DNA of 27,984 nucleotides. It comes from a virus. This document shows positions 641-2,260 of the stretch, piece after piece (positions within the stretch are counted from its first letter, which is position 1; every line of letters begins with the position of its first letter). The DNA is taken from IMG/VR virus record IMGVR_UViG_3300048442_000711, positions 1-27,984 of that record; one strand, 5' to 3'. The notes under the pieces were generated by a model. The model was given only the letters and a program-made list of their open reading frames with translations. It had not been told where the DNA came from and did no database searches. The translations under genes and the position numbers were made by a program.

Positions 641-2260
641 GTGATAGCAGGAAGTTTATTCTCCGGTATAGGAGGTTTAGAATATGGTCTACATAGATCA
701 GGGCTAGTTAGTGAAACAGCTTGGATGGTAGAAATGGATGATTTCTGCTGTTCTGTTTTAGAAAAAAACTTTCCTGAAACAATGATCTTAAATAAAAAGA
801 TAGAAGATGTAAATCCAAAGTATCTACCAAAGATAGATATTCTTACAGCAGGGTTTCCATGTCAGCCAGTATCGGTTGCAGGAGCAAGAAAGGGAGTAAA
901 TGATGAAAGATGGTTATGGGATGAAGTTTGGAGATTTATTGATGTACTTCGACCACGATACTTCATCTTGGAAAATGTCCCAGGACTACTTACAGCAAAC
1001 AAAGGGAAAGCCTTCGAAAGAGTTATCAAAGATATTTCCCAAAGCAGGTTGTATAGATTCGAATGGCAAATTGTATCAGCAAGATCAATTGGTGCGCCAC
1101 ACCTTAGAAAAAGATTCTTTGGAATCGGTGAATTGGCCGACACCCTCGACTCAAGACAACGAACACAAAAATTTGAATTTGAACGAGAAGGGCAGAAGAA
1201 TAGCCAAGAATGGGGGAGAGGACAGATCCTTGAATCTAGCAGACAAAGTTCAGGTAGCGAGTTGGGAAACACCGAACACAATGGATCACCTACCACCGAG
1301 ATCAGGGGAGGCGTTGGAGAATGTCCTGTACAGAGGGGACAAGGAGAGGAAATCCAAGAGGAAGTCGACAGGAAACCTGAGGGAGAATTCACGACTTCAA
1401 GGCAAGAGGCTGAACTATGGATGGGTAACACGACTTATGGGTTTTCCGGATGGATGGCTAGATTAGGCATTAAAAATATTTGGTCATCTACACCAAATAC
1501 CTGGAGGACACCAACCACTTTTGATCACAAAGGTGAAAATGCTTATACACATGCTGCATCTTTCCTACAAGGAAAAAACACAAGAGCTTCAGGTCAACCC
1601 GTACAGGTAGCTTTAGCAGATCAAGTTGCTATGGAGGAATTAAAAAAAGATCCAGATCTATTTCAAAAATATGCAGAACATAAAATTTTAAAAAGACCTA
1701 ACCTACCAAAACAAAAAGATTTTGTAGACTATCTAAGATCCGTAAGCTCTGTAAAGAGTCTCTATCAAAAAGTAGGTAGTGAAATATCAAAATCAAAAAT
1801 AGAGCATTGGTTTAGATATGATGATTCAGGTTTTAGTTATCCATCTATAGATCATTGGTATATTATTAAACCTTACTTACTGCCTCTAAAGTTTGACAAA
1901 GAAATGACTTATACGGAGTCATACAATTGGGTTAATGAAACTGCTTTTCCAACAGCTGCAGCAAGAGATCATAAAGACACATATGGAACTGTTTTGACAG
2001 GATCTAAAACAGGCGATAGGAATACTTTACCTTTAAATATTTTTAGAAAACTTAGAGATCAAATCAAAGATTTTGCTATGTGGGAATATAATATGCCCAG
2101 ATCTATAGAAGATTATCCAGATCGTGTAAATAAACTTAAAGCTTTAGGAAATGCTGTAGTTCCACAATGTGCCGAATTAGTTGGAAGACTAATCTTAAAC
2201 TCTATCGGCACCGATAAACTTATCTTTTGTGATTCAATTAAGGAAGATCATCCTCAGTGA
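641..2260 (+). CDS. C5-cytosine-specific DNA methyltransferase (Dcm family)
   Basis: This 539-residue protein would transfer a methyl group from S-adenosylmethionine to cytosine C5 in DNA. Visible motifs are the SAM-binding SLFSGIGG (residues 5-12), the catalytic GFPCQP with Cys74, ENV (111-113), GAPHLRKR (151-158) of the motif VIII region and the terminal KALGNAVVPQ. The stretch between motif VIII and the end is unusually long (about 330 residues). Its first part (about 168-275) is polar and apparently disordered, and its later part has two WPTP-like modules (WRTPTTFDHKG, AFPTAAARDHKD) and an HWFRYDD...YPSIDHW segment seen in phage methylases. The GTG start lacks a Shine-Dalgarno but sits six bases after an extended -10, so it is probably leaderless; it places motif I at the N-terminus as expected. 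The role is probably protection from host restriction, with unknown specificity. Bases 900-1466 also carry another frame. Confidence 0.9.
   Translation: MIAGSLFSGIGGLEYGLHRSGLVSETAWMVEMDDFCCSVLEKNFPETMILNKKIEDVNPKYLPKIDILTAGFPCQPVSVAGARKGVNDERWLWDEVWRFIDVLRPRYFILENVPGLLTANKGKAFERVIKDISQSRLYRFEWQIVSARSIGAPHLRKRFFGIGELADTLDSRQRTQKFEFEREGQKNSQEWGRGQILESSRQSSGSELGNTEHNGSPTTEIRGGVGECPVQRGQGEEIQEEVDRKPEGEFTTSRQEAELWMGNTTYGFSGWMARLGIKNIWSSTPNTWRTPTTFDHKGENAYTHAASFLQGKNTRASGQPVQVALADQVAMEELKKDPDLFQKYAEHKILKRPNLPKQKDFVDYLRSVSSVKSLYQKVGSEISKSKIEHWFRYDDSGFSYPSIDHWYIIKPYLLPLKFDKEMTYTESYNWVNETAFPTAAARDHKDTYGTVLTGSKTGDRNTLPLNIFRKLRDQIKDFAMWEYNMPRSIEDYPDRVNKLKALGNAVVPQCAELVGRLILNSIGTDKLIFCDSIKEDHPQ
889..896 (+). 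promoter_or_regulatory. Shine-Dalgarno of the nested frame
   Basis: AAAGGGAG ends six bases before ATG 903 and three before ATG 900. It lies inside the methyltransferase gene, whose own GTG start has no such site. It is the main local signal that the nested +1 frame is translated. Confidence 0.45.
900..1466 (+). CDS. Overprinted WPTP-type methylase-associated protein nested in the methyltransferase
   Basis: A 188-residue frame is open in the +1 register entirely inside the methyltransferase. It has an ordered set of motifs that I recognise from stand-alone phage proteins often found with methylases: DTSSWKMSQ, FPKAG...NGKLY, NWPTPSTQDN, then MDHLPPRSGEAL with a basic RKSKRKSTGNLRE stretch, ending in LNYGWVTRLMGFPDGW. 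Over the same bases the methyltransferase frame reads its own motifs: ILENVPG opposite SSWKMSQ and LADT opposite WPTP. A Shine-Dalgarno precedes ATG 903, which may be the true start. The function is not known; a role in target recognition or with the methyltransferase is a guess. Alternatives are a compensated frameshift history or a non-translated shadow. A minus-strand frame is also open here, which lowers the weight of openness alone. Confidence 0.5.
   Translation: MMKDGYGMKFGDLLMYFDHDTSSWKMSQDYLQQTKGKPSKELSKIFPKAGCIDSNGKLYQQDQLVRHTLEKDSLESVNWPTPSTQDNEHKNLNLNEKGRRIAKNGGEDRSLNLADKVQVASWETPNTMDHLPPRSGEALENVLYRGDKERKSKRKSTGNLRENSRLQGKRLNYGWVTRLMGFPDGWLD

What the first reader, a model, noticed from the sequence alone, without database searches (positions are those of the whole stretch)
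900..1466. A methylase gene that encodes a second recognisable protein in the +1 frame
Both frames carry family motifs over the same bases. Frame 1 reads ILENVPG, GAPHLRKR, LADT and EHNGSPTTEI. Frame 2 reads SSWKMSQ, FPKAG...NGKLY, WPTPSTQD, MDHLPPRS and WVTRLMGFPDGW, an ordered series seen in stand-alone phage proteins. Frame 2 stays open for 189 codons and begins behind AAAGGGAG. Stronger still, motifs are register-shifted images of each other (ENVPG/SWKMSQ; LADT/WPTP). If the correspondence holds across homologues, the WPTP family may have been born by overprinting on Dcm methylases, then moved to its own loci. This would be a dual-coded methylase system.
Basis: partly seen in the sequence, partly recalled or inferred. 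Interest (0 to 1): 0.88.

Follow-up and report, generated by a model that had tools for sequence, protein, structure and literature searches.

The report
Methylase gene encoding two proteins
One stretch of phage DNA encodes two different proteins in two reading frames, most likely the chemical half and the DNA-reading half of one DNA-methylating enzyme, and the same double coding turns up in phages, bacteria and archaea.

Summary
The window's Dcm-type m5C methylase (alpha, 641-2260) holds a nested +1-frame gene (beta, 900-1466) that matches PHROG_1008. Every relative examined has the same layout. Of 79 loci chosen only by the alpha region before the overlap, 77 carry beta in +1; the other two are cut by contig ends. 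In bacterial and archaeal genomes it is 79 of 80, and no stand-alone beta was found. Codon-position statistics show beta is under protein-level selection: dual constraint over methylase motifs VI-VIII, beta dominant over the WPTP region. Both frames stay open beyond synonymous-shuffle expectation. Motif IX lies in beta, and motif X lies in one frame only (188 alpha, 11 beta, of 209). Best reading: a naturally split m5C methyltransferase, with alpha catalytic and beta the target-recognition/motif IX subunit, resembling M.EcoHK31I and M.AquI, the two genes written over each other. 'Born on Dcm, then moved to its own loci' is not supported. Beta's WPTP/IX(/X) part looks like the missing half of the enzyme, and only its N-terminal part is overprinted on alpha's motifs. 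Complex formation and activity are inferred, not shown.

The parts
641..2260 (+). alpha gene: Dcm-type C5-cytosine methyltransferase (GTG start, 539 aa)
   Evidence: PF00145 E=1.9e-47 over aa 5-189; TIGR00675 E=6e-41; phrog_363 / phrog_116
971..985 (+). alpha motif VI ENVPG; same bases read SWKMSQ in beta
1091..1120 (+). alpha motif VIII region GAPHLRKRFF; same bases read the LVRHT segment in beta
891..896 (+). Shine-Dalgarno-like AGGGAG before the beta ATG; AAAGGAG/AAAGGAAT-like in most relatives
900..1466 (+). beta gene: nested +1 ORF, 188 aa, PHROG_1008 family
   Evidence: E=1.1e-12; conserved +1 overlap; selection
900..1115 (+). dually constrained part: beta N-terminus (SSWKMSQ, FPKAG..NGKLY, LVRHT) over alpha motifs VI-VIII
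   Evidence: differences at F1 pos1/2/3 0.08/0.04/0.09 against 0.17/0.11/0.39 before the overlap
1134..1400 (+). beta WPTP-type modules (WPTPSTQD..., WETPNTMDHLPPRS...), the probable target-recognition region; the alpha reading here (LADT.., NTEHNGSPTTEI) is largely a shadow
   Evidence: F2 third position is the variable one (0.27/0.08/0.05), F2 aa identity 0.90 against F1 0.70
1407..1457 (+). beta motif IX-like segment RLNYGWVTRLMGFPDGW
   Evidence: near-invariant in A1/A2/A4; profile of the IX-X segment hits only C5-methyltransferases in the PDB (marginal E)
1460..1975 (+). alpha, after the overlap: module that relatives such as L023 carry in the beta frame
   Evidence: aa 274-445 match L023 in its beta frame at 42% identity, E=9e-40; codon signature here is that of the alpha frame
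2123..2197 (+). alpha motif X (RVNKLKALGNAVVPQ...)
   Evidence: phrog_1008 profile positions 294-311 match it weakly

Best explanation
The locus encodes a naturally split m5C DNA methyltransferase whose two subunits are written over each other. Alpha (one frame) carries the SAM-binding and catalytic motifs I-VIII and here also motif X. Beta (+1 frame, own ribosome binding site) carries WPTP modules, which probably read the DNA target, and motif IX. The two proteins would associate to form the working enzyme. Over motifs VI-VIII both frames are selected. Over the WPTP/motif IX region beta is the constrained gene and alpha is an open bridge to motif X. Shown: two selected frames, conserved overlap, motif distribution. 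Inferred: complex formation, target reading by WPTP modules, methylation activity.
For: Nested family and universal +1 overlap. Openness of both frames beyond synonymous shuffles in 26 diverse loci. Codon-position signature switching before, within and after the overlap. Motif X in exactly one frame in nearly all of 209 loci and motif IX-like in beta in 202 of 209. Actinophages and some others: alpha stops after motif VIII and beta holds WPTP, IX and X. Own translation start: in MNEL-type genes the beta ATG lies 4 nt after the alpha start in 30 of 30. Beta IX-X profile matches only C5-methyltransferases in the PDB, at motifs IX-X. Recognition module found in the alpha frame in the window and in the beta frame in L023. 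L249 has motifs IX and X in the alpha frame.
Against: No direct evidence of beta protein, complex or activity. AlphaFold models of beta alone are poor (pLDDT 49 and 46), so there is no structural support. Pfam and NCBIfam do not recognise beta. The PDB match is marginal (E=0.034). A few loci have interrupted alpha frames (L062/L063, L052, L187, L221, L225).
Confidence: 0.78

Rival explanations
1. One long methyltransferase made by programmed ribosomal frameshifting between the two frames, not two proteins.
For: Motifs I-VIII, IX and X are complementary across frames; in actinophages one +1 shift would join them.
Against: Beta is conserved upstream of any useful shift point, over motifs VI-VIII or even from motif I, with its own start. 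The layout in the window would need two shifts. Alpha ends share no slippery or stop context in nine split loci.
Confidence: 0.08
2. Beta is a real nested gene but not a methylase subunit (for example a cognate nuclease, an inhibitor, or an anti-restriction protein).
For: Pfam and NCBIfam give no methylase match for beta; function was never assayed here.
Against: Motif IX is in beta and motif X in only one of the two frames; fused form L249 and the shared recognition module.
Confidence: 0.12
3. Frame 2 is a passive image of a conserved Dcm frame or of base composition.
For: +1 images of conserved motifs are partly forced by the genetic code.
Against: Synonymous changes in the Dcm frame fall about 4-9 fold inside the overlap and F2 third positions vary most in the WPTP region; permutation tests; where alpha ends early its shadow fills with stops (L062/L063).
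Confidence: 0.02

Closest known systems
M.EcoHK31I (YGGCCR), naturally split C5-methyltransferase
   Same: Two polypeptides; the larger has motifs I-VIII and X, the smaller has motif IX (PMC3404938). Same motif split as in the window. From memory, not checked: its small subunit is also encoded in an alternative frame inside the large one.
   Different: The sequence of EcoHK31I was not at hand, so homology was not tested. There the recognition domain is predicted on the large subunit; here WPTP modules lie mainly on the nested one. The target of the window enzyme is unknown.
M.AquI (CYCGRG), alpha/beta C5-methyltransferase
   Same: [quoted passage not shown] like the actinophage layout here.
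   Different: The long +1 overlap found here is not described for AquI in the text read; from memory its two ORFs overlap only briefly.
PHROG_1008 and PHROG_363/116 'DNA methyltransferase' families
   Same: The nested frame is PHROG_1008; the Dcm frame is PHROG_363/116. Streptomyces phage Samy annotates both side by side.
   Different: No statement found that the two families are two readings of the same DNA.
Paenibacillus phage Diva DIVA_49/DIVA_50
   Same: Annotated as methyltransferase with 'g49 internal gene' in +1.
   Different: The passages read of the P. larvae phage genome paper (PMC6070908) do not discuss it.

Membership tests
C5-cytosine DNA methyltransferase (PF00145), alpha | motifs I-VIII and X in one ORF | tested here: met
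C5-cytosine DNA methyltransferase, alpha alone | motif IX and recognition domain in the same frame | tested here: not met
   The motif IX-like segment is in the +1 frame; the alpha frame does carry one later WPTP-like module at 1460-1975
PHROG_1008 (beta) | profile match over the full protein | tested here: met
   E=1.1e-12, residues 2-188 to profile 61-280
Naturally split C5-methyltransferase (EcoHK31I/AquI kind) | catalytic motifs divided between two ORFs without duplication | tested here: met
   188 alpha-only and 11 beta-only motif X of 209; IX-like in beta 202 of 209
Naturally split C5-methyltransferase (EcoHK31I/AquI kind) | both polypeptides needed for activity | not testable with these tools
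   needs expression and methylation assay
M.EcoHK31I | sequence homology of small subunit; YGGCCR specificity | not tested
   its sequence and the paper were not in the collections

The most novel reading that the evidence does not exclude
A widespread, largely unrecognised class of dual-coded m5C methyltransferases in phages, bacteria and archaea, in which the catalytic and the specificity subunits reciprocally overprint each other and recognition modules can pass from one reading frame to the other.
Probability: 0.6. Interest if true: 0.85.

Novelty: new variant of a known kind. Interest (0 to 1): 0.74.

Why it matters
Many genes annotated as a single 'DNA cytosine methyltransferase' would be two genes in one. 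Their DNA specificity would then lie in a frame that annotation usually omits, and the annotated recognition region would be a shadow translation. It also offers a large, deeply conserved natural set of long same-strand overlapping genes, rare in cellular genomes, for studying how two proteins evolve in one sequence and how a split enzyme is expressed in balance.

Tried and rejected
Stand-alone WPTP loci: none found. Passive-image hypothesis: rejected. AlphaFold of the window beta and of the L073 beta: too poor to use, so no fold search was run. PDB search with the general beta profile: no match. Profile comparison with the single E. coli Dcm sequence: aligned at motifs IX-X but not significant. 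Automatic motif counts gave a few false double or missing motif X calls, checked by eye. Literature searches for this overlap found nothing specific; only open-licence papers are held, so this is weak evidence of novelty. L187, L221 and L225 have one alpha stop; decay or sequencing error was not resolved.

Full report
What is there. The Dcm ORF 641-2260 has motifs I-VIII and X. A nested +1 ORF, 900-1466, starts with ATG right after an in-frame TAA and an AGGGAG element and belongs to PHROG_1008. The record is a 27,984-base virus contig with caudovirus terminase, portal, protease, capsid and tail genes.

Generality. A search with the nested protein gave 458 viral relatives; of the 80 kept, 78 have the nested match in +1 to a Dcm match at the same locus, the other two (L049, L053) being contig ends. 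Because that sample was chosen by frame 2, a second sample was chosen only by the first 86 residues of the methylase, which do not overlap. There 77 of 79 have the nested profile in +1 and the two exceptions end at contig edges. In genome contigs of bacteria and archaea 79 of 80 overlap in +1 and the last is a contig edge. About 7% of sampled Pseudomonadota genomes (27 of 398) match PHROG_1008 (two of those loci gave no nested-profile hit here). Over all loci, 287 of 293 nested ORFs overlap in +1, 3 are at edges, 2 are in one ORF with Dcm, 1 is frameshifted and none stands alone; these include duplicates, 209 pairs being distinct in the nested C-terminus and not cut by contig ends. Named phages with the layout include Diva, ABMM1, Mwe-JY08, Catdawg, Vash, Jamun, DrYang, Samy, S-H1, SW5, BF1-TP2 and a Vibrio phage, and an E. 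coli prophage-like gene has it too.

Selection. In the window group the differences per site at methylase codon positions 1/2/3 are 0.17/0.11/0.39 before the overlap, 0.08/0.04/0.09 over motifs VI-VIII, 0.27/0.08/0.05 over the WPTP region, and between 0.16/0.09/0.37 and 0.32/0.16/0.45 after the overlap. Two further groups agree. Position 1 of the methylase is position 3 of the nested frame. So over motifs VI-VIII both proteins are held, and over the WPTP region the nested protein is the constrained one (amino acid identity 0.90 against 0.70). These pairs are not independent of each other. Both frames are open beyond synonymous permutation. In L062/L063, where the methylase stops after motif VIII, its shadow frame fills with stops, which shows that openness elsewhere is kept by selection.

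What beta is. Its near-invariant end, LNPxWVExLMGxPxGW, occupies the place of motif IX, and in actinophages and some others it runs on into motif X while alpha stops after motif VIII. A profile of that segment finds only C5-methyltransferases in the PDB, aligned at motifs IX-X, although at marginal E-values of 0.034-0.57. Motif X occurs in one frame only: 188 alpha, 11 beta; the 10 others are false calls, interrupted frames or degenerate motifs. This complementarity is what a split enzyme predicts. A recognition module found in the beta frame of L023 lies in the alpha frame of the window, and L249 has motif IX itself in the alpha frame, although that one comes from a metagenome assembly.

Translation. 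In MNEL-type genes the beta ATG lies 4 nt after the alpha start, apparently behind the same Shine-Dalgarno, in 30 of 30 distinct genes, although synonymous choices without that ATG exist. In the marine group the nested ATG follows AAAGGAG-like sequences. This speaks for separate initiation and against frameshifting, as do the unconserved alpha ends.

Known and new. Two-polypeptide C5-methyltransferases are known: M.EcoHK31I with motif IX apart and M.AquI with IX-X apart (PMC3404938). I recall that the EcoHK31I small subunit is also read from an alternative frame, but could not check it. One annotation calls the gene internal and actinophage annotators list both ORFs, mostly with shortened overlaps. 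I found no description of the general dual coding. The window's case is therefore filed with a known kind of split enzyme, in a variant with long reciprocal overprinting and repeated WPTP modules.

Noticed in passing
L087 (Mycobacterium phage OfUltron) 1808-2567: A frame switch: the methylase frame is cut early (gp75) and the later motifs continue in what is the beta frame in relatives (gp76).
   Followed up: partly
L249:2799-3788: Dcm ORF with the beta-type motif IX (LNPDWVEWLMGFPIGWTE) and motif X in its own frame, a possible natural refusion, with a shortened nested ORF.
   Followed up: partly
L062:3316-4620 and L063: Alpha stops after motif VIII, the shadow frame is full of stops, and a motif X segment lies downstream in the alpha frame as if in a third piece.
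   Followed up: no
window:1460-1975: Inserted module with WRTP/ADQV ends and a helix-turn-helix-like stretch, in the alpha frame here and in the beta frame in many of L023-L044.
   Followed up: partly
window:862-1431 (-): A 189-codon open frame also exists on the opposite strand over the same region; not tested for conservation.
   Followed up: no
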